A stretch of DNA of 64,000 bases from Triglochin maritima (lineage: Eukaryota; Streptophyta; Magnoliopsida; Alismatales; Juncaginaceae), in the NCBI GenBank assembly GCA_963682175.1, contig OY821788.1, positions 14,092,001-14,156,000 on the forward strand, written 5' to 3'. Positions 3,621 through 41,001 of this stretch are shown here, in pieces; positions within the stretch are counted from its first letter, which is position 1, and each line of letters starts with the position of its first letter. The notes beneath the pieces are model-generated. The model was not told the origin of the DNA, ran no database searches, and was given only the letters and a program-made list of their open reading frames with translations. Both the position numbers and the translations under genes were made by a program.

Positions 3621-3847
3621 GGTCGACCGGTTACCAGTAAACGGTCGACCGATCGGACACGGTCGACCGGACGTGTCTCGACCGATAACAGGGAATTTTC
3701 ATCTGTTCGAACGGTCGACCGAATGTGATCGGTCGGTCGACCGAACATTGTGATGGAATAGTTCCTGTTACGAACGGTCGACCGAGTTATTGAACGGTCG
3801 ACCGAAACCTGGTTCGAGCGGTCGACCGAACCTCCAAACGGTCGACC
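3621..3847. repeat. GGTCGACC palindrome array in copia-1 U3
   Basis: Nine perfect copies of GGTCGACC start at 3621, 3643, 3661, 3713, 3735, 3776, 3796, 3820 and 3840, and a degenerate copy lies near 3676. Most are extended to CGGTCGACCG. Start-to-start steps are 22, 18, 52, 22, 41, 20, 24 and 20 bp, clustering near two helical turns. The intervening sequence is not obviously repeated. The array ends about 180 bp upstream of the TATA box at 4028. Confidence 0.95.
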
Positions 3848-4027
3848 GGTCCAGACGGTTAATGCATAATTAATTTAAGAATTAATTAGATCATGCATGG
3901 AATTGGTCCATAATTGATTTAATTCGTGGCTAATATTATTTATTATTAAATAATGGATGGTTAGATGGAATTTTGCATGAAATCATGGGCAAGAGGTTGC
4001 ACATGAATAGGTAATTTGGAGAGAACT

Positions 4028-4035
4028 TATAAATA
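4028..4035 (+). promoter_or_regulatory. TATA box of copia-1 LTR
   Basis: TATAAATA lies in the expected place between the U3 palindrome array and a pyrimidine-rich R region. The same box is present in the two minus-strand LTR copies. Function is inferred from position and motif. Confidence 0.65.
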
Positions 4036-4497
4036 CAAGTTTATCTCATTACCTCCTCAATTCATTCATTATTTTCTTATGCAAAATTCTCTCTCCATAA
4101 TTCTCCACGAAAATTCCTTAATTCTTAAGTTTAGTTTAGTTCTTAAGAGATCATCTTCTCAAGGGAATTAAAGAGGGGTTAGTAATTGGATTCTAAACCC
4201 TATCGGAGATTGAGAGACTAGCTTCCCTCTCTCCGATCTTGTTTAGAGTTTGGTGAATACTCGGAGACATCCGGCGCAGCGAGGAGCATCCCCAACGTCT
4301 CCGAATCTTCAAGAAGTTTTAGAGAACTTCTAGGTATGAATTTTGGAGCCCATATTTGTTTTAATAAAGTTTTGAAACTAGATATTGAAACAAATTGATG
4401 CATGCATGAAATAAATCATAGAAAATTGTGAATTGATCCTTATTGTGCATAAAAATTCGAAAAATAAATATGTACAATTAAACATGAAATCCTACAG

Positions 4498-4509
4498 TGG
4501 TATCAGAGC
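4498..4509 (+). other. Primer-binding site, tRNA-iMet type
   Basis: TGGTATCAGAGC starts one base after the LTR end. This is the usual initiator-methionine tRNA complement of plant copia elements. Confidence 0.9.
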
Positions 4510-4935
4510 TTAGGGTTCAATTTTGTCTTGATTTAAGGTTGTAAACGGATTTAGTTTACCATCTAGGATTTAAACAATTCGATTTACCGGTTTTTCGGTC
4601 TATGAATGTTTGTTGATGTAATTCTCCATAATAATTCGTACTGAATGTTTTAAGTGTTTTAAAACATGCCATGTAATTATTAGAATTAAGATTTAGACAT
4701 TTGTCTAACTTGCAATAATTTCCTTTTAAGTATAAACGATTATTTTGTAAGAGAATCAACAAAACCGAAAAACTGCGGTTCATCTTTCCATAGGAAATTG
4801 GATGGACAGCGGTTCATAATTAATTTTTGAACTATGGATGCATGAAAAACGTTTTTAATAGATTTCAAAATGTTTTTCGAAGAATTGTTTGGGATTCTAG
4901 ATGCTTGATAAACTAGGTTGGATAGTTTATAATTA
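4510..4935 (+). other. Untranslated leader of copia family 1, truncated
   Basis: The sequence matches the leader of the minus-strand element (about 24220-24636 read in reverse) up to roughly 4935. Similarity then stops, apparently where another element has replaced it. No gag follows. Confidence 0.75.
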
Positions 4936-10475: not shown

Positions 10476-12524
10476 TGTAGGATTTCATGTTTAATTATAC
10501 ATATATATTTTCGAATTTTTATGTATAATAAGGATCAATTTTCAATTTTCTATAATTTATTTCATGCATGCATCAATTTGTTTCAATATCTAGTTTCAAA
10601 ACTTTATTAAAACAAATATGGGCTCCGAAATTCATACCTAGAAGTTCTCTAAAACTTCTTGAAGATTCGGAGATGTTGGGGATGCTCCTCGCTGCGCCGG
10701 ATGCCTCCGAGTACTCACCAAACTCAAAACAAGATCGGAGAGAGGGAAGCTAGTCTCTCAATCTCCGATAGGGTTTAGAATCCAATTACTAACCCCTCTT
10801 TAATTCTCTTGAGAAGATGATCTCTTAAGAACTAAAACCAAACTTAAGAATTAAGGGATTTTCATGGAGCATTATGGAGAGAGAATTTTTGCACAAGAAA
10901 TAATGAATTAATTAATTGGGTAATGAAATAAGCTTGTATTTATAAGCTCTCTCCAAATTACCTATTCATGTGCAACCCCTTGCCCATGATCTCATGCAAA
11001 ATTCCATCTAACCATCCATTATTTAATAATAAATAATATTAGCCACGAATTAAATCAATTATGGACCAATTCCATGCATGATCTAATTAATTCTTAAATT
11101 AATTCTGCACAAAACCGTCTGGACTGGTCGACCGTTTGGAGGTTCGGTCGACCGCTCGAACCTAGTTTCGGTCGACCGTTCAATAACTCGGTCGACCGTT
11201 CGTAACAGGAACTATTCCATCGCAATGTTTGGTCGACCGACCGATCACATTCGGTCGATCGTTCGAACAGATGAAAATTCCCTGTTATCGGTCGAGACAC
11301 GTCCGGTCGACCGTGCCCGATCGGTCGACCGTTTACTACTAACCGGTCGACCGTTGGAGCACTGTTCTGCAGACTTGTCAAATTTCGGTTTAACCCCTAT
11401 AAAATTTGACATTTCGGGATTAGTAGTAAATTCACAACTTATGTAACATATTATCCTATGTAATGATCAATCATTGCACCCCATAATATTTACATCACAT
11501 ATGAATTTAATTTAGATTCTAATTATGTTATTAATCACAACATAATTTTGATTTGTCTTGTTCACCCCATGTGTCATATTTTCTACATGAAACTCGACAC
11601 ATCTTATGAACTCAAAATCCCCATTTCTTGTTTCCCAGTTTTGTGGTGTGACCTATGGGAGGATCTAAACTAAGTTGGCAGTGATATTAAAAGCTTAATA
11701 TCACAAGCTATAAGCAGTATCTAGCTACACATTATAGCTCCCAATTAGTTAGATGTCTTAATTCCGCTCGAACCAAAACCCGATCCATTTAGTGATGGAG
11801 TGCGCCACTTGTGTTCGTCCCTTGCCTCATGATATTAAGAATACACACAAAGTAGTATTGTGTCATCTTTGTATTAGTATTCATTTCTTGATCTCTTTAA
11901 GCTAGTTATAAATATGTGACTTAACTTAAATCACATTGTGCACATTATAACTTTGCTTTATCAAGGGGCCCACTAATATCATCACTCAATTAAGAGGGGC
12001 AATGATAATCTTTTGACTAACTATCTTCTCCAACGAAAGTTATACTTAACCAACTAATGTCTTTACACTACACTCATCGATAGCTCAAGACACTAGTCTA
12101 ATTAAGAACTCCTTAAGCGATCGGATATAAGTCTCATATCAAAGGACCAAGGACACAGTAAAATATTAATGACACAGAAACACATTCCTATAATATTTTA
12201 CTTGTTAGGTCAATTCGGTATACAAAAGTACTATTTTCCTCTTTTGTGTATCCGTGTTGTCACTCACTTGTAGAGCTACAATGATCTATGACCAACACGA
12301 CAATCTTAACTCGGTAATTAATGTCCCATGTTAATTACCATGATTGTGAATATCTTTTGTTTTATGTAAACCAATATCTTTTAGAGCTCTACGGTTAAGG
12401 ACCAAGAGCTTCTTCCTTAACACTTCTGAAAGACGAATAATATAAACAAGGAACAAAATGATTTCTCATTCAATTCATAATAATTGACATTTAAAAGTAA
12501 AACTTTTAGAACACATTCCCTTCA
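10476..12524 (-). repeat. 3' LTR of copia-1 element (2,049 bp)
   Basis: On the plus strand it starts TGTAGG and ends CCCTTCA. It matches the 5' LTR at 24649-28083 over its whole length, with scattered differences. Next to it at 12525-12540 is the complement of a polypurine tract (GTGGGAGAT in sense). Confidence 0.93.
11126..11352. repeat. GGTCGACC palindrome array, 3' LTR copy
   Basis: Perfect sites start at 11126, 11146, 11170, 11190, 11231, 11305, 11323 and 11345. Decayed ones lie at 11253 (GGTCGATC) and 11290. Steps of 18-24 bp dominate. This is the mirror image of the array at 3621-3847. Confidence 0.93.
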
Positions 12525-17938: not shown

Positions 17939-17955
17939 CCCCGGCAACGGCGCCA
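17939..17955 (-). other. Primer-binding site, tRNA-Asp type
   Basis: The plus strand reads CCCCGGCAACGGCGCCA, the 3' end of plant tRNA-Asp, so the sense strand carries TGGCGCCGTTGCCGGGG. It lies 6 bp from the 5' LTR. Confidence 0.9.
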
Positions 17956-17961
17956 AAAACT

Positions 17962-19909: not shown

Positions 19910-21331
19910 CTATCTCGATATATCTTGATTCCCAAGGATGTATTGAGCATCACCCATGTCTTTCATCGAAAATGCAGATTTCAATGAACTTCTCGTTTGC
20001 TCAAGCAAAGGAATATGATTGCCCATAAGCAATATGTCATCGACATATAAGATTAGGAATACTACATGGCTCCCACTAACCTTCTTGTATACACAAGGTT
20101 CTTCCTTACTTTGAATGAAGTGAAGCTTCTTCACTTCCTCGTCAAAGCGTTTGTTCCAACTCCTTGATGCTTGCTTCAATCCATAGATGGATCTTTGAAG
20201 CTTGCATACCTTCCCGCTATTCTTTGGATCTTCAAAAACTTGACGTTGTACCATGTACACATCCTCCTCCAAGTTCCCATTAAGGAACGTCGTTTTGACA
20301 TCCATTTGCCATATTTTATAATCATGAAATGCAGCAATAGCGAGCATGATCCGAATAGACTTGAACATGGCAACCGGTGAAAAAGTTTCAACATAGTCAA
20401 TTCCTTGAACTTGAGTGAAACCCTTCGCTACAAGCCTTGCTTTGTAGGTTGTCAAGTTCCCATCCATGTCCATCTTCCTCTTAAAAACCCATTTATTATG
20501 AATGACCTTTTTCCCTTGAGGAAGGTCAACCAAGTCCCATACTTGATTATCATACATGGATTCTATTTCGGATTCCATGGCCTTAAGCCATAGTTTGGAG
20601 TCTTCCCTTTCCATTGCTTCTTGGAAGGTCAAGGGATCATTGGTATCTAGTACCATGATTTCATGAAGTCCCAGATACAAATCGGGTTTCTTCCTTTCCC
20701 TTGTTGACCTTCTAAGTTCTTTTGGTTCTTCTCGTGTCTCTCGAACTTCTTCCACAATTTCTTGAGGAGTGGGTTCACGTTCAACTCTTGAACGTACACT
20801 TGGTGGGGATGATTGAGATTCTCTCACAATTTCTTGTGATGGTCTCTCGCTCACGCTCCCACTAACCAAAGGAATCTCGGTTGGGCCTTGATGATCTTGA
20901 ATGTCATCATTCATGTCATGATCTTGTAGAGTATCTTGAGTTTCCTCAAGCACAACCTTACTCCCACTACTTTTTACTCTTTCTAGAAATTCCTTTTCCA
21001 GAAATGTGGCATCCCTCTCTACAATCACTCGATTGGAGGTGATATGCCAAAAGTAGTATCCCCTTGTCTCACGAGGATAACCAATAAAGAAGCACTTATC
21101 CGCTTTTGGTTGAAGTTTGGTCGACATCAATCTCTTGACGTAAGCCTCACAACCCCAAATCTTGAGAAAATTGAGCTTAGGTGTTTTACCACTCCATAGC
21201 TCATAAGGAGTTTTCTCCACGGATTTGGATGGAACATTATTTAGTGTGTAAGCCGCAGTTTGTAGTGCATAACTCCAAAAGTAAAGAGGTAATTCCGCAT
21301 GACTCATCATTGACCGAACCATATCGAGCAA
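19910..21331 (-). pseudogene. Copia-1 pol: integrase C-terminus and reverse transcriptase
   Basis: This is a 473-codon frame. The first hundred or so residues are the integrase C-terminal part (YELWSGKTPKLNFLKIWGCE, then a CFFIGYPRETRGYYFW block). A charged linker follows, and then RT beginning near WDLVDLPQGKKVIHNKWVFK. The copia RT signatures KARLVAKGFTQ, YGLKQASRSWN and the active-site YVDDILLMGN are all intact. The frame ends shortly after RT. It makes DNA from the element RNA in the intact family. Here it is cut off from integrase by a stop and from RNase H by a disruption. Confidence 0.93.
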
Positions 21332-21460
21332 TGTCCTATTCCTCCTTTCGGATACCCCATTCCACTGAGGTGTACCGGGAGGGGTGAGTTGAGGTACAAT
21401 ACCAAACTCCTTTAGGTATGAGTCAAATTCAGCACTTAAGTACTCACCTCAACGATCCGT

Positions 21461-21745
21461 TCATAGAGACTTGATTTTCTTGTCGAGATGGTTCTCTACT
21501 TCATTCTTGAATTCTTTGAACTTGTCAAAGGACTCACTTTTGTTTCTCATTAGATAAACATAGCCATAACGACTATAATCATCCGTGAACGTAATGAAGT
21601 ACTTGAAACCATCTCGTGCACTAGTACTCATTGGACCACATACATCGGAATGTATCAAATCCAACAAGCCATTCGCCCTTGGACCTTTCTTCTTGAAAGG
21701 ATTTTTGGTCATTTTTCCCATTAGACATGGTTGCCACGTCTCCAA
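21461..21745 (-). pseudogene. Copia-1 pol: integrase catalytic core (part)
   Basis: The frame includes LDLIHSDVCGP and FTDDYSRYGYVYLM, which carry the first two acidic residues of the DDE integrase core. The third acidic residue is in the segment beyond the break (WNGVSERRNRT, near 21350). An in-frame stop near 21450 separates the two parts. Confidence 0.9.
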
Positions 21746-21803
21746 TGATTTAAAATCAAGTAGACCAAGAAGCTAACCTTCTTGCAATTTCTTGATGCGC
21801 TTT

Positions 21804-22190
21804 TCATATGTGACCAAGACGATAGTGCCACAAGAGAGTATCATTCTCGTGAGTGGTCTTAAGTCTTTTGTTATTGATATTAAAGATTTGTTTATTATCC
21901 AATTCAAGCAAATAGAGATCATTCCTTATGAACGCATTTGCATAGAAAACACCATTCTTCGATATAGACAAACAAGAATTTGAAGTATTTATATTAAAAT
22001 TATCCATATCCAGACATGATACAGAAATAATATTCTTGCTAATCGAAGGTACATAATAAACATTCTTTAGACATAAATTTAAATCACTACATAATTGAAG
22101 CACCACAAAACCTTGTGCAACCGCAGACACGTTCGCACCATTTCTGACCTTCAATTCTACCTCGTTCCTTACGAGTTCCTTCCTATCCAT
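21804..22190 (-). pseudogene. Copia-1 pol: protease C-terminus and GAG-pre-integrase domain
   Basis: The frame contains YYVPSISKNIISVSCLD and LLWHYRLGHI. The latter is the LWHxRLGH motif of the GAG-pre-integrase domain of copia elements. A stop separates it from the upstream gag-protease frame ending at 22197. Confidence 0.88.
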
Positions 22191-22196
22191 GAGTAG

Positions 22197-23161
22197 CTAC
22201 ACATTAGAAACTATGTGAGCACAAGATCCGGTATCAATTACCCAATCCTGGACAGAGGTGGCTAAATTTATTTCAATAACAAATATACCTTTGGCCTTTT
22301 TAGGTCGCCGACGTTCAATTACTCCGTTGTCAAGGTCTTCCTTGTACTTGGGGCAATTTGGCCAGATGTGTCCTTTTTCACCGCAGTGAAAGCACTCTGT
22401 ATTGTGAGTTGGAGATTTTTGAGATTTCCCCCTCGAGGCACTCGCACGAGCACCTCCTACTCCCTTGCTCTTGATTGAACCACTTTTGGTAGATTTGCCC
22501 TTTCCTTTACCAATCTTTTGGCTCCTCCCATGGACGGCAAGGACATGCTTGTCCCTACCCTTGCCCATGTAAACTTCAGCAGTTTTGAGAGCGTTGTGCA
22601 GCTCCTCAAGACTCACCCCTTTTTCACGCACGTGATAGTGCATCACAAAGTCCTTAAAGGACGGGCTAGAGAGCCAAGAATCATATCTTCAGCAATGTCC
22701 TCGGGCATTGGTGAAGGGAGCTTTGCCAACTTCTCAAGGTATCTTTGCATCGTGAGAAAATGCATAGATACTGATGTTCCCTCCGTCATATGGCACCTTG
22801 TGAGTGCGATGGTGGTCTTATAGTGCTCCTTTCGGGCACTATCTATGAACATCTTTGATAAAGCCTCCATGGTCTTCTTGGGTTTTGAATCCAAGTATTT
22901 CGCTTGGAGCGAGTCACCCATGGATGCTAGCATAAGACCGTGAACCTGGTTCTCTTGGTCTTCCCACTTGGCTTTAGCCTCTTTCTCTTCATCGGTTAAT
23001 CTCTCATTCCATTTTGGGATTGGACCTTCCAAAATGTGAGATAGTTTCTCAAACTTTAACACGAGGTCGAGTTTGAGTTGCCAACTAATGAAGTTTGAGC
23101 CATCATTTGCTAAAGGGTGTTTTTCTATCATGGATCGTACGATAGGTTGGATGTTCGACAT
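22197..23161 (-). pseudogene. Copia-1 gag and protease active site
   Basis: The frame starts at the ATG at 23159-23161 (MSNIQPIVRSM..), about 1.5 kb from the 5' LTR. The first part, to about 22643, is the gag polypeptide (LANDGSNFISW, MFIDSARKEHYKTTIALTRC). A frameshift near 22643-22646 leads into the second part, which holds a CX2CX4HX4C zinc knuckle (CFHCGEKGHIWPNC) and a protease active site WVIDTGSCAHIV. The gene codes for the particle protein and processing enzyme in intact relatives. Here one frameshift and a downstream stop inactivate it. Confidence 0.92.
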
Positions 23162-24636
23162 TTTTCTACAAAATAAATCATATAGGATTTTAAAGCCAAT
23201 TTTATGTTTTAATACACATGCATACATATATTGAATATAAATGTAAATGTTGCAAATAAAAAAAATTGCCCATAAATACAACAATCCAAGATCCCATCAA
23301 TCGTAATATAGACTAGCTAAGGGCTATCGAATACATTACAATATCAAGGTAAGAAAACATTTTCTAATCACAACTTTTTTGAATTTTAGCAACATTTAGC
23401 ATCTTCAAACTCTTGTGACTCTTGTCGTTTTAATTATGAGGGAATACGACCTATCCTCGTAAGAAAAACTTTTTCCCAAAACCGAGCGAGGGCTCTAGGT
23501 AATGTTAAGAAAACTTATTTTCATTTGATACGAGATACGTTTATTCATTGTATTCACAACTAAACATACTTGGGGTTCACTAGGGTGAAACACACCTCAT
23601 ATATTTAATTGTGGCACAACAACAGACAACCATTATATCTCCCACTATTCCCAAAGATGGAGGGAGTTATCTCCCGCTAAGGGCGAGCAGAGTATCCCTC
23701 GATCAATGGCTGCTAGTGGATGAAATAAGAAGGAAATTTATTCTTAATTTTTGTTTGGACAATTTAACATGTGATTTAGAATTTTAGGTTATCATGCATA
23801 TACACATCCTAACATTCAACACATTCATCACATGCATAGCAAGATAAAAACAGAAATTAAACATTCCCACAATCCACGTCGTGTGAGTTTATATGTTCCC
23901 TTCGATCCTCGATCCCTGATCTTCGATCCTCGATCGATGCACTACAGCGGCGACTTCCTCTTGCACCGGAGATGTAGATTTCACAGAAAATAAACATGCT
24001 CCTCACATTCGATAAAAACCGACTAGTGCAAGTCCTATGTAAAAACCTCTCATACGATAAATGCAACTTTCTAAAAGACTGAAAGAGAGTGAATTTTGGC
24101 TTTTACAAACATAAGCCCCTGTATAATAATGATTACATACATTCATAATTGCTGATTTGGAACATATAAACTCACAATCCTGCAAAGCAACTCAAGCATC
24201 CATGAACGCAATTGTTATAAACTACAGAATCTAATTTATCAATCATCTAGAATCCTAAACAATTCTTTGAAAAATATTTTGAAATCCATTAAAAACATTT
24301 TTCATTCATCCATAGTTCAAAAATTAATTATGAACCACTGTCCATCCAATTTCTAATGGAAAGATGAATCGCAGTTTTTCGGTTTTGTTGATTCTCTTAC
24401 AAAATAATCGTTTATACTTAAAACGAAATTATTGCAAGTTAGACTTATGTCTAAATCATAATTCTAATAATTGCATAACATGTTTTAAACATTCAAAACA
24501 TTTAAAACTAATTATTATAAAAGAATTATTTCAACAAACATTTAAAGACCGAAAAACCGGTAAAACGAATTGTTTAAATCCTAGATGGTAAACTAGATTT
24601 GTTTACAGCCATAAATCATAAGAAAATTGAACCTGA
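23162..24636 (-). other. Copia-1 leader region
   Basis: This 1.47-kb non-coding leader lies between the primer-binding site and gag. It matches the leader fragment at 4510-4935. It contains short 'gatcctcgatc' repeats near 23900-23935 and no gene. Confidence 0.8.
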
Positions 24637-24647: not shown

Positions 24648-25298
24648 CTGTAGGATTTCATGTTTAATTATACATATATATTTTCTAATTTTTATGTATA
24701 ATAAGGATCAATTTTCAATTTTCTATAATTTATTTCATGCATGCATCAATTTGTTTAAATATCTAGTTTCAAAACTTTATTAAAACAAATATGGGCTCCG
24801 CAATTCATACCTAGAAGTTCTCTAAAACTTCTTGAAGATTCGGAGATGTTGGGGACGCGCCTCGCTGCGCCGGATTCCTCCGAGTATTCACCAAACTCTA
24901 AACAAGATCGGAGAGAGGGAAGCAAGTCTCTCAATCTCCGATAGAGATTAGAATCCAATTACTAACCTCTCTTTAATTCTCTTGAGCAGATGATCTCTTA
25001 AGAACTAAAACTAAACTTAAGAATTAAGGGATTTTCGTGGAGAATTATGGAGAGAGAATTTTTGCACAAGAAATAATGAATGAATTAATTGGGTAATGAA
25101 ATAAGCTTGTATTTATAAGCTCTCTCCAAATTACCTATTCATGTGCAACCCCTTGCCCATGATCTCATGCAAAATTCCATCTAACCATCCATTATTTACT
25201 AATAAATAATATTAGTCACGAATTAAATCAATTATGGACCAATTCCATGCATGATCTAATTAATTCTTAAATTAATTCTGCACAAAACCGTCTGGACC

Positions 25299-25525
25299 GG
25301 TCGACCGTTTCAAGGTTCGGTCGACCGCTCGAACCTAGTTTCGGTCGACCGTTCAATAACTCGGTCGACCGTTCGTAACAGGAACTATTCCATCGCAATG
25401 TTTGGTCGACCGACCGATCACATTCGGTCGACCGTTCGAACAGATGAAAATTCCCTATTATCGGTCGAGACACGTCCGGTCGACCATGCCCGATCGGTCG
25501 ACCGTTTACTACTAACCGGTCGACC
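25299..25525. repeat. GGTCGACC palindrome array, 5' LTR copy
   Basis: It has the same architecture as 11126-11352. A few sites differ between the two LTRs: GGTCGATC at 11253 is intact here near 25426, and a site near 25479 has changed at its edge. Confidence 0.9.
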
Positions 25526-26840
25526 GTTGGAGCACTGTTCTGCAGACTTGTCAAATTTCGGTTTAACCCCTATAAAATTTGACATTTAGGGATTAGTAGT
25601 AAATTCACAACTTATGTAACATATTATCCTATGTAATGATCAATCATTACACCCCATAATATTTACATCACATATGAATTTAATTTAGATTCTAATTATG
25701 TTATTAATCACAACATAATTTTGATTTTGCTTGTTCACCCCATGTGTCATATTTTCTACATGAAACTCGACACATCTTATGAACTCAAAATCCTCATTTC
25801 TTGTTTCTCAGTTTTGTGGTGTAACCTATGGGAGGATCTAAACTAAGTTGGCAGTGATATTAAAAGCTTAATATCACAAGCTATAAGCAGTATCTAGCTA
25901 CACATTATAGCTCCCAATTAGTTAGATGTCTTAATTCCACTCGAACCAAAACCCGATCCATTTAGTGATGGAGTGCACCACTTGTGTCCGTCCCTTGCCT
26001 CATGATATTAAGAATACACACAAAGTAGTATTGTGTCATCTTTGTATTAGTATTCATTTCTTGATCTCTTTAAGCTAGTTATAAATATGTGACTTAACTC
26101 AAATCACATTGTGCACATTATAATTTTGCTTTATCAAGGGGCCCACTAATATCATCACTCAATTAAGAGGGGAAATGATAATCTTTTGACTAACTATCTT
26201 CTCCAACGAAAGTTATACTTAACCAACTAATTTATTTACACTACACTCATCGATAGCTCAAGACACTAGTCTAATTAAGAACTCCTTAAGCGATCGGATA
26301 TAAGTCTCATATCAAAGGACCAAGGACACAGTAAAATATTAATGACACAGAAACACATTCCTATAATATTTTACTTGTTAGGTCAATTCGGTACACAAAA
26401 GTACTATTTTCCTCTTTTCTGTACCCGTGCTGTCACTCACTTGTAGAGCTACAATGATCTATGACCAACACTGATTGACATCATTTCATGCTCATATTTG
26501 TATCTTATATCCATTATCTTTCACCTAAACAATGCTATGTCACGAGTTTTATGTTTAGTTTTCAGGAATAAATAGGTTTGAAGAGATGAAACATAAAAGG
26601 ACCCAAAAGCTGGGAAAAAGGACTGGATTGTGAGATCGGGGGACCAAGATGCAAGGGAGAAGGACCTGAACGCAAGACAGAGGGACCTAAGAGCAAAACA
26701 GAATACTTCACACCATCATGGGGAGTATTTTAGCAATTGTATTCGGGTCGGAGCTCCAACAAACGAAGTCAATGCATCAAAGACCACCAAAAGCACAAAG
26801 AAAAGCCCAGAATAAAACTCAACTGGATCTGGACATTTTG

Positions 26841-26858
26841 GACCGCCAATTGGCGGTC
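26841..26858. repeat. Perfect palindrome GACCGCCAATTGGCGGTC
   Basis: This 18-bp perfect palindrome lies about 120 bp upstream of the LTR TATA box. The same sequence is at 28730-28747, and a near copy is at 61953-61970. Confidence 0.95.
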
Positions 26859-26935
26859 TGGATTAGTCCAGATCCGCCAAGATTTTTCCTGGATTTGTAC
26901 TAATGTTCGTTGAGGCTATTTTTGGTGTTAGTTTA

Positions 26936-26986
26936 GTCCCACATCGGGGGATTGTCCCGGATTAGCTTTTTCCATGCCTATAAATA
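26936..26986 (+). promoter_or_regulatory. USE-like element plus TATA box in family B LTR
   Basis: GTCCCACATCG at 26936-26946 fits the plant U-snRNA upstream sequence element RTCCCACATCG exactly. TATAAATA follows at 26979-26986. The 32-bp gap puts the motif centres about four helical turns apart, the spacing known for Pol II-type plant snRNA promoters. Confidence 0.7.
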
Positions 26987-28083
26987 GAACTCCTCACCTT
27001 CCATTGTAATCACTCCATATTTTAAGTGGCTATTCTTCCTACTAGAAGTGAGGCCTTGAAGCACACACTAAAGTAGGAGGATGCTACTTTTAATGTGAGT
27101 CATTTTAATACAAGTTTTCTTTATTATGTTGTTTGTTTTATGTTTCTTGTTTTGCTTGGCTTAATCTCATTTCATTAGTTTTATTAGCTTAGTTAATATG
27201 CTTTCTTTGTTTAGTTTAATAATTAGTGTAATGTTTAGTGAGTAGTTCCATCCCCTTTGGGGGTGGAGTAGATGTACATACATGCATTAGAGAATGGGAT
27301 GAAGGCTTTATTTTTTATGTGTTGATAAAACATGAATGTATGCTTGCTTGTTTAGGATAGAATTTATAACTTGATGAGTTTTGCCAAAATGATTAGACAC
27401 CTCTCATGCTTGTTTAGGTTCTGAAATAAACAACTTGCATATGTAAATGTTAATCAACTAAGTTGGTGAATATATTGATAGGTTTTGCCATAACATTTAG
27501 ACACTTCCTATGCTTGATAAACACCACCTTCATGTGCTTAAAGAATGCATTCTACACCCACCTCTTTGCATGTGTGCACTCACTCCACCCCTTAGGGGTT
27601 TTCCCATTTCTGTATTCCAGCATTCTTGTTTTGTCCTTAGCTTAGTTGTCATTTCAATGTTTGTTTCTTTCGTTCGCATTTCATACTTCTTAGCGTAGTT
27701 TAGTGTAGAGTAGCATAATCAATCTTTCTCCCCCAATTTTTGCCACTTGATTTCGTACAAGCAAGAGACTACTCACCTCCCTGAGGACGACCCGTACTTG
27801 CCACCGCTTCATCGCGGCCGTGCACTTGCGGTTTAATATAAAACGTTCAACAAACACGACAATCTTAACTCGGTAATTAATGTCCCATGTTAATTACCAT
27901 GATTGCGAATATCTTTTGTTTTATGTAAACCAATATCTTTTAGAGCTCTACGGTTAAGGACCAAGAGCCTCTTTCTTAACACTTCTGAAAGACGAATAAC
28001 ATAAACAAGGAACAAAATGATTTCTCATTCAATTCATCATAATTGACATTTAAAAGTAAAACTTTTAGAACACATTCCCTTCA

Positions 28084-30134: not shown

Positions 30135-31174
30135 TGTAGGATCGATGTGGCCCTAATTAATCTGATCAAATTAACAATTCCTACTTAAACATGCAGCAGA
30201 AACAATAATTAAAACAAGTAGGGAAAGAGGCAATGCAAACAACAAATGGAGAAGGCGATCTTATAGAGGTTCGACACCCCACCTGGGTCCTACTTCCTCT
30301 CTTAAAAGCTCCGCTCGATTCCATGAGCTCTGCCTACGTCTTCACTATCCACTCTCTGTTCTGGGTCGGGAGAGAACACCTTTACAAAACAAGCTTCGCG
30401 AACACCCTCACAAACTCTTTCTTCCGCTCGCAACCGGAGAGGGATACTTCAAGTTTTCACCGAAACCTTTACAGCTTTGAAAAACAAAGTAACTTGAGTA
30501 TTGGACAGTCTAACTTGAGCACACTTTGAGTATGGTAAGGATTTGGATCAAAGGTGTGGAAGTTTAAGCACGGAGTGTAGAGGATTCAGATTTCTTGAGT
30601 GGGAGAGTTTCTCTCCAGTGTATGAGGCAAATAGAAGTTGGAGAGTTGTGTAAATAAGGTGTATCACGTCGGTTATGGAACTGACGTGATATTTTCCTCC
30701 CTTTTACGTCTCCCTTTTATGATGTTGGTATATTGAAACAGTACAACAGACGTGATATGGGCCAAACAACCGACGTGATCTCCATATTTTCCAACAGTGT
30801 GGGAACCTATATTTATAAGTTCCTAGAGAGATATAGCCGTTAGGGAAGATTTGGTAAAGTTTTATGTAAGATACACGAAACAAAAACTCAGATTCAGCAA
30901 ATTTGTCCTACATCGGTCGACCGACACAGGACGAACAGTCGACCATTTCTTTAAGAATAAACAAATATTCGAACCAACAAGAGAACGGTCGAACCAAACA
31001 GGCTACAACCTAAGTTATCGGTCGACCACATCTAGGACCAATCGACCGATTAGAGGGTTTTCGCTAACTAAAATATTAGCGCTCAAATGCAACAAAGAGG
31101 TTCGTCGGACCGAAAATATCAGGCACATATGGGAGACAATAATGTCTTCATCTGGTTGACCACCAAAAAGGCAT
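30135..31174 (-). repeat. Truncated copia LTR (family 2 relative) with GGTCGACC sites
   Basis: The plus strand begins TGTAGGATCGATG, the complement of an LTR end also seen at 56965. It continues through a U5/R region similar to that of the solo LTRs at 31213 and 39507. Palindrome sites or near-sites are at 30915, 30937, 30987, 31020 and 31040, with pair spacings of 22 and 20 bp. It is cut off at 31174 by the next LTR. Confidence 0.75.
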
Positions 31175-31582
31175 TGATTAGTGTCATATCATGCATATAT
31201 CCAGGTCATATATGTTGGCTTTTTGGCCTTAATCTTATGTTTTGATGATTTAATCAACCGAATCTTAATTAGAGTAGCACACACTATGCATTGCATATAT
31301 ATTGTATTGTGCTAACCTCTACAGGTGATCAAGACTCAAGAAAGATGGAAATGAAGTCAAGACATGTAATTAAAGCTAAATCGAAGACATGTAATCTTGA
31401 TTTCTTTTGAGTCTTAGGAACAAAGTGTAATTGAGCATACTTGAGCTAAAATCAACTTAATCACACACTAGGTTCCCTATAGAAGTCACACACCAAATTT
31501 CACATTATTTGGACTTCAATAGATCACCCAAACTTAGACCGGAAAACACCAAAACCTGAACTACAAAAGTCTGCCAACATTC

Positions 31583-32073
31583 GGTCGACCGCAACATGCC
31601 GTTCGGTCGACCGAGTGATCATGTCTCATGTTTGTGTTTTCACTGCCCATATTCGGTCAACCGTGTTTTACCTTTCGGTCGACCGTCAGATCATATTTTC
31701 TCGACCGTTACTTTTGTCGTATATACCCAACGGTCGTATTCGTATTAAACCAAAAATACCCCAAATGTATTTCATGTATCGGTCGACCGAGGACCACGAT
31801 CGGTCAACCGTTGGTTCATCTCTTGACAAACCCAAAGTGCCTGTCCATAATCGGTCGACCGCCAAAACCAGTTTCGGTCGACCGTTCACACATTTGTTTG
31901 TCACCCCAAAAGTGCCTGGACGAAATCGGTCGACCGAACCCTATCTTGTGTTCGACCGATGACTTAAGTGAACCTAAGTCGTAGAGTTGGGCGGTTGACC
32001 GTTGCTTAACCGGTCGACCGAACTGAGTGTAAAACTGCCTAACGGTCGACCGATTGTCCCAATCCGGTCGACC
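31583..32073. repeat. GGTCGACC palindrome array in copia-2 U3
   Basis: Perfect sites start at 31583, 31605, 31677, 31781, 31853, 31876, 31928, 32012, 32044 and 32066. Decayed sites are at 31655 and 31802 (GGTCAACC), 31699, 31950, and 31993 (GGTTGACC). They fall into pairs 19-23 bp apart, and pair-to-pair distances of 72-75 bp are common. Linkers at 31781-31930 show weak tandem similarity, while the palindromes are conserved. Confidence 0.95.
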
Positions 32074-32180
32074 GAATTCAGCCAGAATTGGGTTCTGAAC
32101 TTTCTGTTTTGTGTAATTACACATCAACTCATACCCAATCAATCCCAACGACTCTATTCTCTCTAATGCCTATATAAGGA

Positions 32181-32404
32181 GTTGTAAAACACATTTTAAC
32201 ACAACTCTCCCACTACAAACTTGTCCCAAACTTTAGAGAGAATCCAAAACACTCAAAGCTACAAACCTTCCACACTTAGTGATCATTTCTTAGGGTTGTA
32301 AAACACATTTTAACACAACTCTCCCACTACAAACTTGTCCCAAACTTTAGAGAGAATCCAAAACACTCAAAGCTACAAACCTTCCACACTTAGTGATCAT
32401 TTCT
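32181..32404 (+). repeat. 114-bp tandem duplication just downstream of the LTR TATA box
   Basis: The segment beginning GTTGTAAAACACATTTTAAC at 32181 is repeated from 32295 almost without change. It lies immediately after the TATA box at 32171, so the transcription start or R region is doubled. Confidence 0.92.
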
Positions 32405-33130
32405 TCATCCTACTCAAGTGTACTCAAAGTTTAGAGAGTGTTGTTCCACTCAAGTTCTCAATTGTTGTAAAAGGAAGCAAGGACTTCGGTGAAAGCCCGA
32501 AGTGTCCCTCTCGGATTGTGAGAGGAAGATTTCAAGCAAGCGAGGGTTGTTCGCGTTGCTTGTGGTGTAAAGGCGTTCTCTCCCGGCCCGGAACGGGGAG
32601 TGGATAGTGAAGACGCAAGAGGAGCTCGAACGGGGATTCGAGAGGAGCTTGCAAGAGAGGACGTAGGCGCGGCCGAACCTCTGTAAATCTGGTGTCTTCT
32701 TGTGTGGTTTGCATTATTATTCCTACACTTGCTTGTTTTGTTTAAATTTCCGCTGCGCATATCGATTGCTTAAACAAGTAGGTGATTAGATTAAAAAGTG
32801 ATTAGTGAACCCATAACCCACACGATCCTACAATATATCCTCCATTTTGAGCCTAAGAAATACTATGTAACGAGTTTTATGTTTAAGTTTCAGGAATAAA
32901 TATGTTTAAGAAGAAGAAGACAAAAAATACTAAAACACAAGAAAAATGACTAATTTGTGAGACATATGGACCTATCTGCAAGAGTGAAGTACCTGGATAT
33001 AAGCTAGAAGGACCAAATAGCAAACTGAGAAACTCCACACCATCATGTGGAGTATTTTGGTAATTAGATTTGAGCCCATACTCAAACAACCGATCATGGT
33101 GCACTCTACGTGGCGAATTGAAGCACTTGC

Positions 33131-35162: not shown

Positions 35163-37407
35163 TGTAACATCCCGAAACAGCGGAAAATTTAAAAATTCAT
35201 AATCAAGACAAAGAGCACAATAGTCAAGACGGGACTGCCACTTCTCATAAACAAATAAGCGGTGCACCATAATACATCAGAGTTTGCCAAAATGAATACA
35301 TGATTACAACAAAAGACAAGGGAAGATAACGTAATCATGTGGACCTCAGTGGTCTGACTAGAGGATCCGACTCCAAACGCGCGCGCCGCCGATCACCACC
35401 CCACTGGACCTACTGCGGTCCTGAAAATATATAACAACAATGCCTGAGTTTCCAGAAGGAAACCCCGTATGCCAACTCACCTATAAATGCATGCATTACA
35501 CAATGAACCTATCATACTAGTAGTATGTCATGGCATCGACAGAAATGGAAAACAGTTCCCCCGAAGGGTAAAATAGGACATCAGTCCGACAATCAACAAC
35601 GAGTCTCCCGAGGAGACCTACTGCAGGCACATGCAGTCTTACAGCACGCGACATCGCACCCCCCACACGCAGCTACACTACTCAAGGGTTCGGCAGGGAG
35701 CCTTTGTCACGCCTGCGGGCCGATAGAATACAGATCTGCAAATCTCAGTGGTCGGAGCCACAGGGACCAACGGGGCCGTCGCCCGGAAGGTATAACAACA
35801 ACATCTCGGTAGGTGCCCAGCCGAGGAAAAACAACATAGCCGGAACAGCCTCGGCTCAACAATCACCATCGCCGGCACAACCTCGGCGGCATCACCGGCA
35901 CAGCATCGGTGGTCCATCACAACAGTCCGGCACAGCATCGGACAAAACCAGACCGAAGTCTGCCAGGTCATCAGGCTCCTCGAGCCGCAAACACCAACCG
36001 CGCCGCTATAAAAGCAGGGCAGCGACCTCCGTAGCCCGTGGGCCGGTAGTCACCTCACCCAACGCCAGTTGCGTGCCCGCACAACATCAACACTGGGATC
36101 CGCGATCCCTCAGGCCTGCTATACTACAATAAGTCCAATCAATACATCACATTTGTCACGCTCCATACCTGGAACTGACGCGTCCCGAACACCCACACTC
36201 TTCCCAACGGCGGTCCCTGGGCAGGCACGCATCACGCGCCCACCGTCACCTCCCGGATCACGCACAAGGCGAGGACACGGGTTTCCGTGGACAAAGTTGG
36301 CATTCAAAAGGGAACCTGGAATTCTGTTCTGGGCCCAAGCGGTCGACCGTTTCCAGAAAGGAATCGGTCGACCGTCCCTAACACGGTCTACCGCTGCGCA
36401 CAAAACACAATCCCCCAAACGGTCTACCGAAGGTCTAAAACCGGTCAACCGAACGAGGTCAAAATTCGGAGTTTGGTCAACATTACAATCCAGTCTATCG
36501 GTTGACCGACTCAGGTCCCGGTCGACCGAAAACTAACAGTACAACTTCTACAACATTTTATTCCATCGGTTGACCGACTCAGGGGTCTCGGTCGACCGAC
36601 AACAGTTAGGGTCAACCTATATTTCTACGTCATATAACGGTCGACCGAACATACTCCAAAGTCCGAACATCATGCAACATAAACCAATATATTTAAGTTC
36701 CGGTCGACCGAACACAAGACCTCGGTCGACCGAAACGCAACAGACAGTAAAGATATACATGCATTCGGTCGACCGTCCAAGGACCGGTCGACCGCCCGGT
36801 CGTCTTCAAACTCGCGCCAGCCGAGGTTTCTTCGCCCAAACGCGACGTCGGAGAGGCCTCCGACCTCCTCCGACCGACCAACACGACCCTCTCATGAGTG
36901 TCAACAACAAACCACACTAGAGAGCGGCATACCTCAAAAGCAACGACGAAAGTGCCGGAGCTCTGCTCGCGTACGTCGCCTCCGGTGATCTCCTCGTGCG
37001 CTCAACTCCGCGCCTCTCCTGCCTGGACCGCTTCGCACCTCACGCCGACGCAGCCTCCTCCGCCTGGCCTTGGGTGACTAAGGAAGAAGGTGTGTGTTTG
37101 GTGAGAAAGGAGGAAGAAGAAATGAGAAGGAGATGAAAGGAGAAGAAAGAGAGAGAAGGCCTCATTTAAACTCGTGCTACAGTACACCACCTCTTCCCCT
37201 TCCCATGCAAACACCTGCAACCCCACTTCCCCATGCAAACCAACCCTAACCATCATTAGTCCACTAACCCTAGGTTAGGGATCTAACACACCACCTCCTC
37301 TGCGACGGGTGGACCCTTCTCTCTACCTTCAAACAACCCGATAAGGGTGACCATTTTCTGGCAAATTTCCTGAAAGGCTTGGAAAGGACCAAAGGAAGGG
37401 TCTTACA
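35163..37407 (-). repeat. Gypsy-type LTR (2,245 bp), apparently solo
   Basis: On the minus strand it starts TGTAAGACCC and ends CGGGATGTTACA, the terminal form of plant Ty3/gypsy (Tekay/Del-like) LTRs. A CCGGCACAGC..CGG-rich segment near 35830-35945 and a dense palindrome array at 36341-36803 lie inside. No primer-binding site follows on the left and no polypurine tract lies on the right. The flanking 5-mers (CACCA and CGTTC) do not match, so the solo status is unproven. Confidence 0.7.
36341..36803. repeat. GGTCGACC palindrome array in a gypsy-type LTR
   Basis: Perfect sites start at 36341, 36366, 36520, 36590, 36639, 36702, 36724, 36777 and 36796. Decayed sites are at 36385 and 36421 (GGTCTACC), 36443 and 36610 (GGTCAACC), and 36500 and 36568 (GGTTGACC). 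Pairs (about 19-25 bp) begin at 36341, 36421, 36500, 36568, 36702 and 36777, with a single site at 36639, giving a 63-80 bp super-period. The same design is seen in copia LTRs. Confidence 0.95.
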
Positions 37408-37969
37408 CGTTCTCACAAAAAACCCACATTTTTCATAACCATAATACAAAAATGGAGTGGGTTATCAAATATTTAGACTTATACCTAGAGATCAATAGAA
37501 GCAGCAAAAAATCGAAAAACAACACAAACAATTAAACAAAACCCACCTCCACGGTTGAAGCCTCGCACCTCCATTGGACTTGTACCACTGACGCAACCGT
37601 CTGTACGCACACTGGAATGGCGACGTAGCCGCACATGCATAGGAGAGGGCTACGAGGCATGGCCTCCTAGTTGTCGTCACCATAGAAGATCATCTCCTTT
37701 CCGGTTTTCGGCTATGGTAAAAGGAAATGGTGGGATTGAGAGAAGGGGAGGCAAGTGGAGCGATGCTTCCTTTATATGCCTGCGGCTTTGGAAGGAAGGG
37801 GTAAAATCATCTTTGGAGTTCGAAAAGATGCCTCGAAACTCAACACCGATTGTGGCAGCCAAACACCCCTTAATGTTTCATCTCAAACGGTCCAAAAACT
37901 ACTTAAAAATAGTGCAATAAATAGTGGTGTTTCTTCAAATAACAATTTCTGATTCTTGGCATCCAAACA
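37408..37969. other. Unassigned sequence
   Basis: No gene or known element was recognised. GC content rises between 37540 and 37700, but the short frames there are overlapping and unlike known proteins. Confidence 0.4.
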
Positions 37970-37977
37970 TGCCCAGC

Positions 37978-38245
37978 TAGGGGTGAGCAAAATTCGGTTC
38001 GGTCCGGTGTCCGGACCGAACCCAATTTTTCGGTCCGGTCTTCGGTCCAGAGGACCATGGGAATTCGGTCTTCGGTCCGGTTCGGTTCGGTCCGGTCAAA
38101 GACCGAAATTTTAAGGGTTAAATTCGGGTTTTGGACCGGACCAGACCGAACCGGACCGAACCGAATTTTTCGGTCCGGTCTTCCGAAAAGTTCGATCTTC
38201 GGTCCGGTCCGGTTCGGTCCGGTCCCGGACCGAAGGTCACCCCTA
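37978..38245. mobile_element. Foldback hAT-type MITE rich in CGGTCC
   Basis: Terminal inverted repeats TAGGGGTGA and TCACCCCTA bound a 268-bp unit flanked by a perfect 8-bp duplication TGCCCAGC (37970-37977 and 38246-38253), the hAT hallmark. The interior is built from repeated CGGTTCGGTCCGG-type phrases in both directions, so the whole unit can fold back on itself. It has no coding capacity. Confidence 0.92.
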
Positions 38246-38253
38246 TGCCCAGC

Positions 38254-39506
38254 ATACATAAGCTCCACAAGTGGTCCTGTTAGCATTTATCATTATGATT
38301 ACACACACATGTAGTATGACTCAATAAATGAACCAGACATGGAAATGATTAAAGTTACTTACGATCCTGCTGGTTGTTGGGGACAATATCATTCGAAAAT
38401 GTACATAAAAGACGTGATGACCGGTTTACCAAATTTTTCATGCAAGAGAGCTTCAATATTGGCAACCTTTAAGGTAACAAAACGAGAATGAAGGTACTAA
38501 AGTATAGTATCTCGTTATAATTATGTACTTTAAGTACATGTTAATTTAAAAACATGTCATCAAACAAGTTGTGTCGTTCTACCAAATGACCTGGATTGTT
38601 TTCACCAAACGAACTGGGTAGTCCGGTCGAAACGAGGTGGCTTGTTCGTTGCAACTTAATTAACAACTTGACTCATTTTAAATATATATATATATATATA
38701 TATACTTCTCTCTAAGACACGAAACAGCTTGTTCAAGATGAGACAACTTAATTAACAACATATCCAATTGTAAATGATTGGAACTTCTGTACGGATGAGT
38801 CTGTCTTGTTCGGAACGCAAGTGTGCCACTAAGGACGACTATGTCTCCCGTATGGTCAAGTCGGTCCCACTCGGGATGTATGTGTCCCGATCGGGATGCA
38901 AGTGTGGCTCGCTCGAGAAGAAATTACGCCCTAGCCCTGTACTGGATTGGTGCTTCCCACACGAGACAAAATAAGCCAACTTGTTTGGAACAACGAGCCA
39001 GCGTTGGGATGCACTAGTCCTGCACTAGGCTAGATTGTTTGACCAAACGAGTTGGGTCATTTTCACCAAACAAGTTGTGTCGTTCTACCAAACGACCGGA
39101 CTTGTTTTAACCAAACGAGTTGGGTCATTCACCAAAATGAGCTAGCTCGTTTCCACCAAACGAGCTGGGTCATTTTCACCAAACGAGCTGCAACTTAATT
39201 AACTCACTAGAAGAACAAAGGTGCAACTTAATTCACAACCTGACCCATTTTAATATATATATATATATATATAATAATATGTGTACTAATTTATGACATT
39301 TGTGAGATTCAAATTCAATCAAGACATTGAAACGAATGACATTTTCTACAACTAAATAAGCTCGGTCCTTTTCTTCAACTAAATAATTGGGTCGTGTTTT
39401 AATACTAAATAACCTAGGTCGCTTCCTTGAGCTAAATAAGGTGGGTCATTTTTTATTACTAAACAACCTAGGTTGTTTTCTTGAGCTAAATAAGTTGGGT
39501 CGTTTG
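38254..39506. other. Minisatellite-like phrase arrays and TA microsatellites
   Basis: At 38790-38930 there are 'ggatgcaagtgtccc' phrases like those at 10205-10425. At about 39035-39190 a CCAAACGAGTTGGGTCATTTTCA-like phrase repeats, and from 39350 a CTAAATAAGNTNGGTCNTTTTCTTGAG-like phrase. The latter array is interrupted by the solo LTR at 39507 and resumes at 41002-41090. TA runs lie at about 38683-38704 and 39254-39272. No gene is seen. Confidence 0.7.
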
Positions 39507-41001
39507 TGTTGGATCATGAGGGTCTCTAATTCTAATCACTTTTAACCCTAATTACCTACTTGTTTAATGATCAAATATATGCAGCGGAATATAAACTAAA
39601 CAAGCAAGTAAAGGAATGGAAAATGCAAACCACAAGGAGTCGGGGATTTTTATAGAGGTTTGGCACCCCACCCGGGTCCTAGTCCTCTCTTGCAAGCTCC
39701 GCTCGGATCACCGAGCTCCACTCATGACTTCACTAACCACTCCTCGTTCCGGGCCAGGAGAGAACAACTTTACAATCTTCAAACTCGCGAACAACCCTCG
39801 CCGAGCTTGGCTCCTTCTCTCACAATCCGAGAGGGATCACTTCGAGCTCTCACCAAAGTCTATACTCATGTCTTGGGCTTTCACCAAGACCCTTGCTTCT
39901 TAAACAAACAATGAGTGGAACAACACTCTCTAATCTTGAGCACACTTGAGTGAGCATATGATTTAAGACTAAAGTGTGGAAGGTTTGAGGCTTGGAGTGT
40001 TTCGAGCTTTCTCTCTAATGTAGGGGACAAATAGTAGTGGGAGAGTTGTGTTAAAATGTGTTTTACAACTCTATTTATAAGCTCCAAAAGAGTTATAGCC
40101 GTTGGGGATGAACTGGGTAAAGATTGTGTAAGATACACAAAATAGAAACTGAGAGGACCCAATTCTGAGTAAGTTCGGTCTACCGGATCGGGTTGTTTGG
40201 TCGACCGTTGGATAATTTTTGACTCGGTTCGGTCGACCGGTTAAGGAACGGTCGACCGCCAAAGGATATGACTCAAGTACACTTAATTGATCGGTCGAAC
40301 ACCGAGATAGGTTCGGTCGACCGATTCACAACACACTCTTTAGGGTTGACAAACAAGATCATATTCGGTCGATCGAAACAAAGTTCCTCGGTCGACCGAA
40401 AACTAACATGCAGTTTTGGTTTGTCGAGTCTTCTAAGTTCGGTCGACCGATACACTAAATGTATTTGGGGTATTTGGAGATAATACGAATACAACCGTTG
40501 GGTATATACGACAAAACAAATGGTCGGAGATTTGTTGTTACTCGGTCGACCGAATTGGGCAGTAAAACACTAATAGGATATATGATCACTCGATCGACCG
40601 AACGGTCTATTTCGGTCGACCGAATGTGGGCAGACTGTTCAGGTTTTGGTTTAGTGTTTTCCGGTCTGAGTTTGGGTGATCTATTGAAGTCCAAATTATA
40701 TGAAATTTCGTGTGTGACTTCTATAGGGAACCTAGTGTGTGTTTGAGTAGTTTTTAGCTCAAGTATGCTCAATTACACAAAGTTCCTAAGACTCAAAGAA
40801 ATACAAATTATATGTCTTCAAATGAGCTTGATTACATGTCTTGACTTGATTTCCTTTCTTCCTTGAGTCTTGATCACCTGTAGAGGTTAGCACAAACCAA
40901 TATATATATGCAAATGCAACATGTGTGCTACTTTACATGATCACAATTAAGATTAGGTTGATTAAATCTTCAAAACATAGATTAAAGCCAAAAAGCCAAC
41001 A
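39507..41001 (-). mobile_element. Solo LTR of copia family 2 (1,495 bp)
   Basis: The plus strand starts TGTTGGATCATG and ends AAGCCAACA. Flanking 5-mers GTTTG (39502-39506) and GTTTT (41002-41006) match at four of five positions. It is a minus-strand relative of 31213-32832. It sits inside a repeated-phrase array whose two halves (39350-39506 and 41002-41090) join across it. Confidence 0.88.
40177..40621. repeat. GGTCGACC palindrome array in minus-strand copia-2 LTR
   Basis: Sites include 40177 (GGTCTACC), 40199, 40231, 40250, 40293 (GGTCGAAC), 40315, 40390, 40441, 40544 and 40614. The spacings 22, 32, 19 and 22 at its left end repeat those at the right end of the 31583-32073 array, as expected of related LTRs. 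Confidence 0.92.

What the first reader, a model, noticed from the sequence alone, without database searches (positions are those of the whole stretch)
3621..40621. One 10-bp palindrome, CGGTCGACCG, forms arrays in the U3 of several unrelated LTR families
Seen directly: roughly 50 perfect GGTCGACC sites in 64 kb, against about one expected for an 8-mer with equal base use. Nearly all lie in arrays inside LTRs: copia-1 (3621-3847, 11126-11352, 25299-25525), copia-2 type (30915-31047, 31583-32073, 40177-40621) and a gypsy-type LTR (36341-36803). The surrounding LTR sequences are not similar between families. Inference: the arrays were either acquired by exchange between elements or selected as binding sites for one protein. 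I know of no described plant LTR system of this kind.
Basis: partly seen in the sequence, partly recalled or inferred. Interest (0 to 1): 0.88.

Follow-up and report, generated by a model that had tools for sequence, protein, structure and literature searches.

The report
Shared palindrome arrays in retrotransposon LTRs
Three LTR families with no other detectable similarity, in a window that is probably from a plant, carry clusters of the same 10-base palindrome, likely docking sites for one DNA-binding protein that would switch the elements on; the same palindrome was published in 2010 for a single grapevine element, so its sharing between families is the new part.

Summary
In detail: 49 CGGTCGACCG and 55 GGTCGACC in 64 kb against about 0.01 and 0.32 expected, all in seven arrays inside LTRs of three families. 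The claim that nothing like it is described does not hold: Bousios et al. 2010 (PMC2829016) give exactly CGGTCGACCG as the repeated motif (RM) of a Vitis Sirevirus and call RMs Sirevirus-specific among copia elements. Here it sits in solo LTRs that fit the Sirevirus layout (copia-2), in a copia element that fails the Sirevirus tests I could run (copia-1), and in an LTR with Del/Tekay-like gypsy ends.

Two results favour protein-binding sites. Between two copia-2 LTRs the palindromes differ at 5/110 positions, the spacers at 108/337. Neighbouring sites favour 22 bp spacing in all three families, and pooled spacings show a 10.4 bp period, though the Del-type array alone does not. With sites masked, no between-family match remains but one 14-base hit at E 0.057. 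The binding protein, its effect and genome-wide counts are untested; the own-genome search failed seven times. Verdict: a new variant of the known RM, probably kept in several lineages by selection for one protein.

The parts
2450..4496 (+). copia-1 LTR, copy a (TGAAGGG...CCTACA)
   Evidence: PPT AGTGGGAGAT just before, PBS junction GTGG-TATCAGAGC just after
3620..3848 (.). palindrome array of copia-1 copy a, 9 exact sites
4028..4033 (+). TATA-like box about 180 bp after the array
10476..12524 (-). copia-1 LTR, copy b (3' LTR of the element that continues at 19166-24648)
11125..11353 (.). palindrome array of copia-1 copy b, 6 exact and 3 one-mismatch sites
24649..28083 (-). copia-1 LTR, copy c, interrupted by an unrelated insert at about 26472-27849
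25298..25526 (.). palindrome array of copia-1 copy c, 7 exact and 2 one-mismatch sites
19913..23296 (-). broken copia-1 gag and pol frames (RVT_2 in 19913-21448, Pol_BBD in 21807-22196, Retrotran_gag_2 in 22646-23296)
30135..31207 (-). fragment of a copia-2-related LTR (upper limit not determined); array 30914-31048 with 1 exact site
31213..32832 (+). copia-2 solo LTR with perfect 5 bp duplication ATATA (31208-31212, 32833-32837)
31582..32074 (.). palindrome array of the copia-2 solo LTR, 10 exact and 3 one-mismatch sites
32171..32176 (+). TATA-like box about 97 bp after the array
39507..41001 (-). second copia-2 solo LTR; flanks GTTTG and GTTTT
40176..40622 (.). palindrome array of the second copia-2 LTR, 7 exact and 4 one-mismatch sites
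35163..37407 (.). 2,245 bp LTR with Del/Tekay-like ends (TGTAACATCC...GGGTCTTACA on the + strand); orientation unresolved, no target duplication
36340..36794 (.). palindrome array of the Del-type LTR, 9 exact and 5 one-mismatch sites

Best explanation
Three LTR families with no other detectable similarity carry arrays of the palindrome CGGTCGACCG, which most likely work as clustered binding sites for one dimeric host protein that would bind them cooperatively and drive transcription of the elements. Shown: the arrays; the lack of other similarity between families; far stronger conservation of sites than of spacers between two related LTRs; the preferred 22 bp spacing (about two helix turns); a TATA-like box after the array in the copia LTRs. 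Inferred: that a protein reads the sites; that it is a dimer (each site is CGG-N4-CCG); that it is host-encoded (different element lineages use one sequence); that it activates; and that each lineage gained its array separately under selection. A LOB-domain (LBD) protein is a candidate only.
For: 49 decamers against about 0.01 expected, all in LTR arrays. Families share only the motif: one 14-base match at E 0.057 is left after masking. Footprint between copia-2 LTRs 31213-32832 and 39507-41001: sites 5/110 changed, spacers 108/337, rest of the aligned 1.08 kb 106/579; p 2e-10 site against spacer, same in four MAFFT settings; with sites masked before aligning, 11 of 14 sites still coincide exactly. 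Exact 22 bp spacing: 2/8, 4/13, 3/13 in copia-1, copia-2 and Del-type, 9 in all against 0.9-1.7 expected, 0 of 10,000 random placements. Pooled period 10.4 bp, p 0.0005-0.0013 for the best period, n=38. The three copia-1 copies show no site protection (8/270 site, 18/417 spacer, 182/4776 other, summed over the three pairs), as expected if selection acts on active lineages and stops after insertion. LOB-domain dimers are described as zinc-finger proteins binding GCGGCG that discriminate palindromic DNA by a 'molecular calipers' mechanism (introduction of PMC10118128).
Against: No binding, expression or methylation data. The Del-type array alone is not phased (10.5 bp p 0.26-0.39; best period p 0.91-0.93); copia-1 alone is weak (best period p 0.12-0.14); the second copia-2 array on exact sites alone is not phased (p 0.95, n=6). 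The copia-1 excess of 22 bp spacings fades with an 18 bp minimum (p 0.089). In the Del-type LTR the candidate TATA boxes lie before the array in either orientation, so an upstream enhancer position is not shown. A spacing run 22-43-19 shared by copia-2 and the Del-type array (p 0.047 exact; 0.26 with 1 bp tolerance) hints weakly at common origin. RNA folding is also strong. The footprint rests on one pair of LTRs.
Confidence: 0.55

Rival explanations
1. The palindromes act in RNA: self-complementary 10-mers in the transcript pair with one another, and the structure either serves the element or feeds host small-RNA silencing, as proposed for maize Sirevirus LTR palindromes.
For: Arrays fold far better than dinucleotide shuffles (z -6.1, -7.7, -6.7; 0 of 200, 100 and 100 shuffles as good). 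In maize, clusters of LTR palindromes are small-RNA hotspots (passages of PMC5311732 and PMC10760457).
Against: Any array of self-complementary 10-mers scores high against such shuffles, so the z-scores do not discriminate. RNA pairing does not predict 22 bp or 10.4 bp spacing or identity of the decamer between families. No small-RNA data here.
Confidence: 0.17
2. The arrays have a common origin: one family acquired the array from another by template switching or conversion long ago, and the spacers have since diverged.
For: Identical decamer; spacers diverge fast (32% between two copia-2 LTRs), so homology could be erased; shared spacing run 22-43-19 between copia-2 and the Del-type array, p 0.047.
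Against: No between-family similarity with sites masked except 14 bases at E 0.057. The shared run is not significant with 1-2 bp tolerance, and copia-1 shares no unusual run with either other family. An exchange would still need selection to keep the sites.
Confidence: 0.17
3. The sites are targets of an element-encoded anti-silencing protein acting in trans on several families, in the manner of Arabidopsis VANC proteins.
For: VANC proteins bind short motifs dense in non-coding parts of their elements (PMC5735166 passages). 15 of 18 one-mismatch sites are C>T or G>A, 12 at CpG, as expected of methylated DNA; some of these are shared by copies.
Against: VANC targets grow as tandem repeats; here Tandem Repeats Finder reports only one 1.9-copy hit inside any array (40230-40266). 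No such gene was seen, but only 15 of the 39 frames of 110 aa or more were scanned with Pfam. Unrelated families would not be expected to share one element's factor.
Confidence: 0.06

Closest known systems
Sirevirus repeated motif (RM), Bousios et al. 2010, PMC2829016
   Same: Exactly CGGTCGACCG in the listed Vitis Sirevirus (12 copies, 10 in the 3' LTR); palindromic CGG-CCG core; dense LTR arrays; CpG-rich; shortly ahead of a TATA box.
   Different: There RMs are Sirevirus-specific among 21 Sireviruses and 30 classic copia elements; gypsy elements were not in that comparison. Here the same decamer is also in a copia element that fails Sirevirus tests and in a Del-type LTR. A site-against-spacer footprint and a helical spacing rule are not in the Results that I read.
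Maize Sirevirus LTR palindromes and small RNAs (Bousios et al. 2016, not held; known here from passages of PMC5311732 and PMC10760457)
   Same: Palindrome clusters in LTR cis-regions. In maize the copia palindrome is also the most abundant motif of structured Helitron regions, a precedent for one palindrome in two superfamilies.
   Different: Different sequence; the Helitron case is not shown to be an LTR enhancer array; Ty3 elements there lacked an obvious peak of structured regions.
Del/Tekay LTR CpG islands, Cruz et al. 2014, PMC4029996
   Same: Variable CpG-rich stretch inside a long Del LTR; ends of the LTR here fit the Del attachment sites.
   Different: Eudicot Del elements there had no LTR CpG island, and the passages I saw name no palindrome array. 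Here the array has CpG observed/expected 1.59 against 0.88 in the rest of the LTR.
VANC target motifs of Arabidopsis VANDAL transposons, PMC5735166
   Same: Short motif at high density in non-coding element DNA, read by a sequence-specific protein.
   Different: Those motifs spread as tandem repeats and the protein is element-encoded; neither is seen here.

Membership tests
Sirevirus (applied to copia-1) | PPT AGGGGGAG followed by AT/TG | tested here: not met
   AGTGGGAG-AT|TG in both copies with the junction (2440 and 12527), the commonest kind of change in classic elements
Sirevirus (applied to copia-1) | 5' junction CA/ATTGG-TATCAGAGC | tested here: not met
   CA|GTGG-TATCAGAGC at 4495-4509
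Sirevirus (applied to copia-1) | Long linker (average 1.5 kb) with several PPT copies | tested here: not met
   84 bp from pol stop to LTR, one PPT; the classic average is 78 bp
Sirevirus (applied to copia-1) | Place in the Sirevirus clade of an RT tree | not tested
   Protein hits carry no lineage labels; no reference set was at hand
Sirevirus RM layout (applied to copia-2) | At least 8 RM copies starting 200-400 bp into the LTR, spanning 300-500 bp, TATA box shortly after | tested here: met
   Starts 370 and 380; about 490 and 450 bp long; 13 and 11 sites with 1 mismatch or fewer; TATA-like box about 97 bp after
Sirevirus (applied to copia-2) | PPT, PBS junction, RT clade | not testable with these tools
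   Only solo LTRs and a fragment are in the window; the genome search did not complete
[quoted passage not shown]
   + strand: TGTAACATCC (9 of 10, all four key positions) and GGGTCTTACA. The - strand ends also come close (TGTAAGACCC; GGGATGTTACA), so orientation stays open
Del/Tekay gypsy (applied to 35163-37407) | Gypsy pol with chromodomain, RT clade | not testable with these tools
   No coding region next to this LTR; flanks CACCA and CGTTC show no target duplication
VANC-type motif array | Motifs amplified as tandem repeats | tested here: not met
   One 1.9-copy hit inside any array (minimum score 40)

The most novel reading that the evidence does not exclude
One host dimeric protein, perhaps of the LOB-domain class, reads CGG-N4-CCG sites set two helix turns apart, and at least three LTR lineages (classic copia, Sirevirus-like copia, Del gypsy) have each evolved the same array as their enhancer. 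The Sirevirus RM is then a general plant LTR device in which the length between CGG and CCG picks the host protein.
Probability: 0.3. Interest if true: 0.82.

Novelty: new variant of a known kind. Interest (0 to 1): 0.58.

Why it matters
If unrelated retrotransposons converge on one palindrome with one spacing rule, that sequence is bait for the protein that drives them; the 2010 description of the RMs could not name a binding factor. It would also mean that these motifs do not mark one copia genus. The site and spacing are defined well enough for DAP-seq, one-hybrid and reporter tests.

Tried and rejected
A triple-site pattern had no match in viral contigs. In prokaryote genomes it matched 32 stretches; 11 are from Dactylosporangium. 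I read 6 of the 32 (L001, L005, L013, L017, L019, L028): GC 0.70-0.74, spacings mostly 30-41 bp, so bacterial repeats of their own. The other 26 were not examined.

Lineage of copia-1 from protein hits: 120 of 7,919 hits are listed; the named rows are flowering plants but for one labelled Escherichia coli; many rows have no name. The best is 69% identical over 91%; the one Vitis row is 51%. The host is therefore probably a plant and perhaps not Vitis; the species is unknown.

For the motif itself, one search found 584 papers (40 listed) and one search found 12 with GGTCGACC and 'retrotransposon'. Of those 12, PMC2829016 has it as an LTR motif, PMC6712407 in a primer, and the other 10 I know from the listing only. 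(junction and LTR-end strings) gave nothing useful. Read: PMC2829016 Results in full, outline and passages; PMC4029996 outline, passages, one section; passages only of PMC5311732, PMC10760457, PMC6712407, PMC5735166, PMC10118128. Bousios 2016 was not held and not read.

Rejected or left: growth of the arrays by tandem duplication; Rfam families (none at gathering score); a shared spacing series as proof of exchange (marginal). Rows dropped before counting: the 2-mismatch site at 3730 overlaps the exact site at 3734 and was left out of the spacing tests. copia-1 copies b and c were left out of them because their spacings repeat those of copy a. The 40176 array was run in and out of the pooled test, left out, and the 30914 array was used only. 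LTR ends used were a few bases off those settled.
Full report
OBSERVATION. The window holds 49 CGGTCGACCG and 55 GGTCGACC, against 0.006-0.012 and 0.32 expected. The rest of the window has one 1-mismatch and eight 2-mismatch sites.

ELEMENTS. Self-comparison and the sequence give three families. (1) copia-1: LTRs of about 2.05 kb in three copies (2450-4496; 10476-12524; 24649-28083 with an insert), and one element with broken gag and pol frames that match copia models (RVT_2 E 9.5e-64; Retrotran_gag_2 E 2.5e-8). (2) copia-2: solo LTRs 31213-32832 (perfect ATATA duplication) and 39507-41001 (flanks GTTTG and GTTTT), and a related fragment 30135-31207. (3) One 2,245 bp LTR, 35163-37407, with Del/Tekay-like ends.

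KNOWN OR NOT. A full-text search for the decamer led to Bousios et al. 2010 (PMC2829016). Its Table 3 lists CGGTCGACCG as the RM of a Vitis Sirevirus, 12 copies, 10 of them in the 3' LTR. RMs are described there as palindromes with a CGG-CCG core that form CpG islands, start 200-400 bp into the LTR and lie shortly before a TATA box, and as Sirevirus-specific, being absent from the classic copia elements compared. So motif and layout are known. Occurrence in a classic-type copia goes against that paper; gypsy elements were not in its comparison. [quoted passage not shown] Among 12 held papers with GGTCGACC and 'retrotransposon', I know of no other LTR array, but 10 of them I saw only as listings.

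LINEAGES. copia-1 fails three Sirevirus tests: PPT AGTGGGAG instead of AGGGGGAG, junction CA|GTGG-TATCAGAGC instead of CA/ATTGG-TATCAGAGC, and an 84 bp linker. Its array starts 1,171 bp into a 2,047 bp LTR with a TATA-like box about 180 bp after it, unlike the Sirevirus layout. copia-2 fits that layout: arrays start at 370 and 380, and a TATA-like box lies about 97 bp after the last site. It has no internal sequence here, so membership is likely, not shown. The third LTR fits the Del attachment-site description on the + strand (TGTAACATCC, GGGTCTTACA). Its two ends resemble each other. TTTAAAT on the - strand and CTATAAAAG on the + strand (36007-36015, seen) point to different orientations, and both come before the array. 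I leave its orientation, and whether the array is in U3, open. Eudicot Del elements were reported without LTR CpG islands; this array has CpG observed/expected 1.59.

ONLY THE MOTIF IS SHARED. With sites masked, BLAST at E up to 0.1 leaves one match between families, 14 bases at E 0.057. A recent transfer of the array is unlikely. An old one is not excluded because spacers diverge fast. A spacing run 22-43-19 shared by copia-2 and the Del-type array is marginal (p 0.047 exact, 0.26 and 0.61 with 1 and 2 bp tolerance).

FOOTPRINT. Between the two copia-2 LTRs (aligned over about 1.08 kb), sites differ at 5/110 positions, spacers at 108/337 and the rest at 106/579 (p 2e-10, site against spacer). 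Taking only exact sites of one LTR gives 4/100 against 109/347, or 1/70 against 98/323. Two of 13 sites are gapped in the other LTR. With sites masked before aligning, 11 of 14 still coincide, one is 2 bp off and two fall in gaps. The three copia-1 copies show no such protection: 8/270 site, 18/417 spacer and 182/4776 other positions, summed over three pairs that are not independent. Conservation thus seems to have acted while a lineage was active and to have stopped after insertion. Of 18 one-mismatch sites, 15 are C>T or G>A, 12 at CpG (p 8e-7 against 8/30; some are shared by copies), which fits decay of methylated DNA.

SPACING. Exact 22 bp spacings between neighbours (2 mismatches or fewer): 2/8, 4/13 and 3/13 in copia-1, copia-2 and Del-type; 9 in all against 0.9-1.7 expected, 0 of 10,000 placements. 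Per family p is 0.024-0.089, below 0.0001 to 0.0015, and 0.003-0.017, depending on the minimum spacing allowed. Pooled spacings (n=38) have a best period of 10.4 bp, p 0.0005-0.0013; exact sites alone (n=25) p 0.0005-0.002; with the 40176 array (n=49) 0 of 4,000. Spacings above 26 bp alone: p 0.024 at 10.5 bp. Single arrays: 31582 array p 0.0015, 40176 array 0.06, copia-1 0.12-0.14, Del-type 0.91-0.93 for the best period. The pooled phase rests mainly on the copia arrays. Two-turn spacing of perfect dyads suggests dimers side by side on one face of the helix; this is inference.

RNA ALTERNATIVE. The arrays fold well as RNA (z -6.1, -7.7, -6.7), as self-complementary 10-mers must when shuffles break them. 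Maize work links such palindromes to small RNAs. Helical spacing is not predicted by that model. Both may be true: PMC10760457 proposes a tug of war between cis-function and small-RNA targeting.

CANDIDATE PROTEIN. None is shown. LOB-domain proteins are described as zinc-finger dimers that bind GCGGCG and discriminate palindromic DNA through 'molecular calipers' (PMC10118128 introduction). CGG-N4-CCG here, and the other spacer lengths in the RM table, would suit that, but no motif comparison was made.

VERDICT. The kind is known since 2010, down to the exact decamer in Vitis. New here: its presence in a classic-type copia and a Del-type LTR beside Sirevirus-like LTRs, the footprint, and the shared spacing preference. 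Interest is set at 0.58, a little below my first figure of 0.6, because of the maize copia-Helitron precedent.

Noticed in passing
12723-19160: Nested LTR element with two identical 1,199 bp LTRs and 5 bp duplication GTGTC, inserted at the 3' end of copia-1 pol; a 495-codon open frame (15206-16690, - strand) has no Pfam match up to E 1. No palindrome in its LTR.
   Followed up: partly
1-4932: copia-1 LTR 2450-4496 is flanked on both sides by internal sequence (pol 3' part before it, 5' leader after it), as in a tandem element made by unequal recombination.
   Followed up: partly
32181-32405: Perfect duplication of about 114 bp just after the TATA-like box of the copia-2 solo LTR.
   Followed up: no
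37990-38240: CGG/CCG-rich stretch of TTCGGTCCGG-like repeats without the GTCGAC centre.
   Followed up: no
39038-39505: Imperfect tandem repeats with units of 23/45 bp and 27/54 bp next to the second copia-2 solo LTR.
   Followed up: no
26472-27849: Insert inside copia-1 LTR copy c, related to several stretches at 28.4-33.1 kb and 57.9-62.9 kb; family not identified.
   Followed up: no
L013, L017, L019, L028: Dactylosporangium genomes carry arrays of CGGTCGACCG, in these four inside a longer palindrome-like CGGTCGGTCGACCGAC, mostly 30-41 bp apart.
   Followed up: partly
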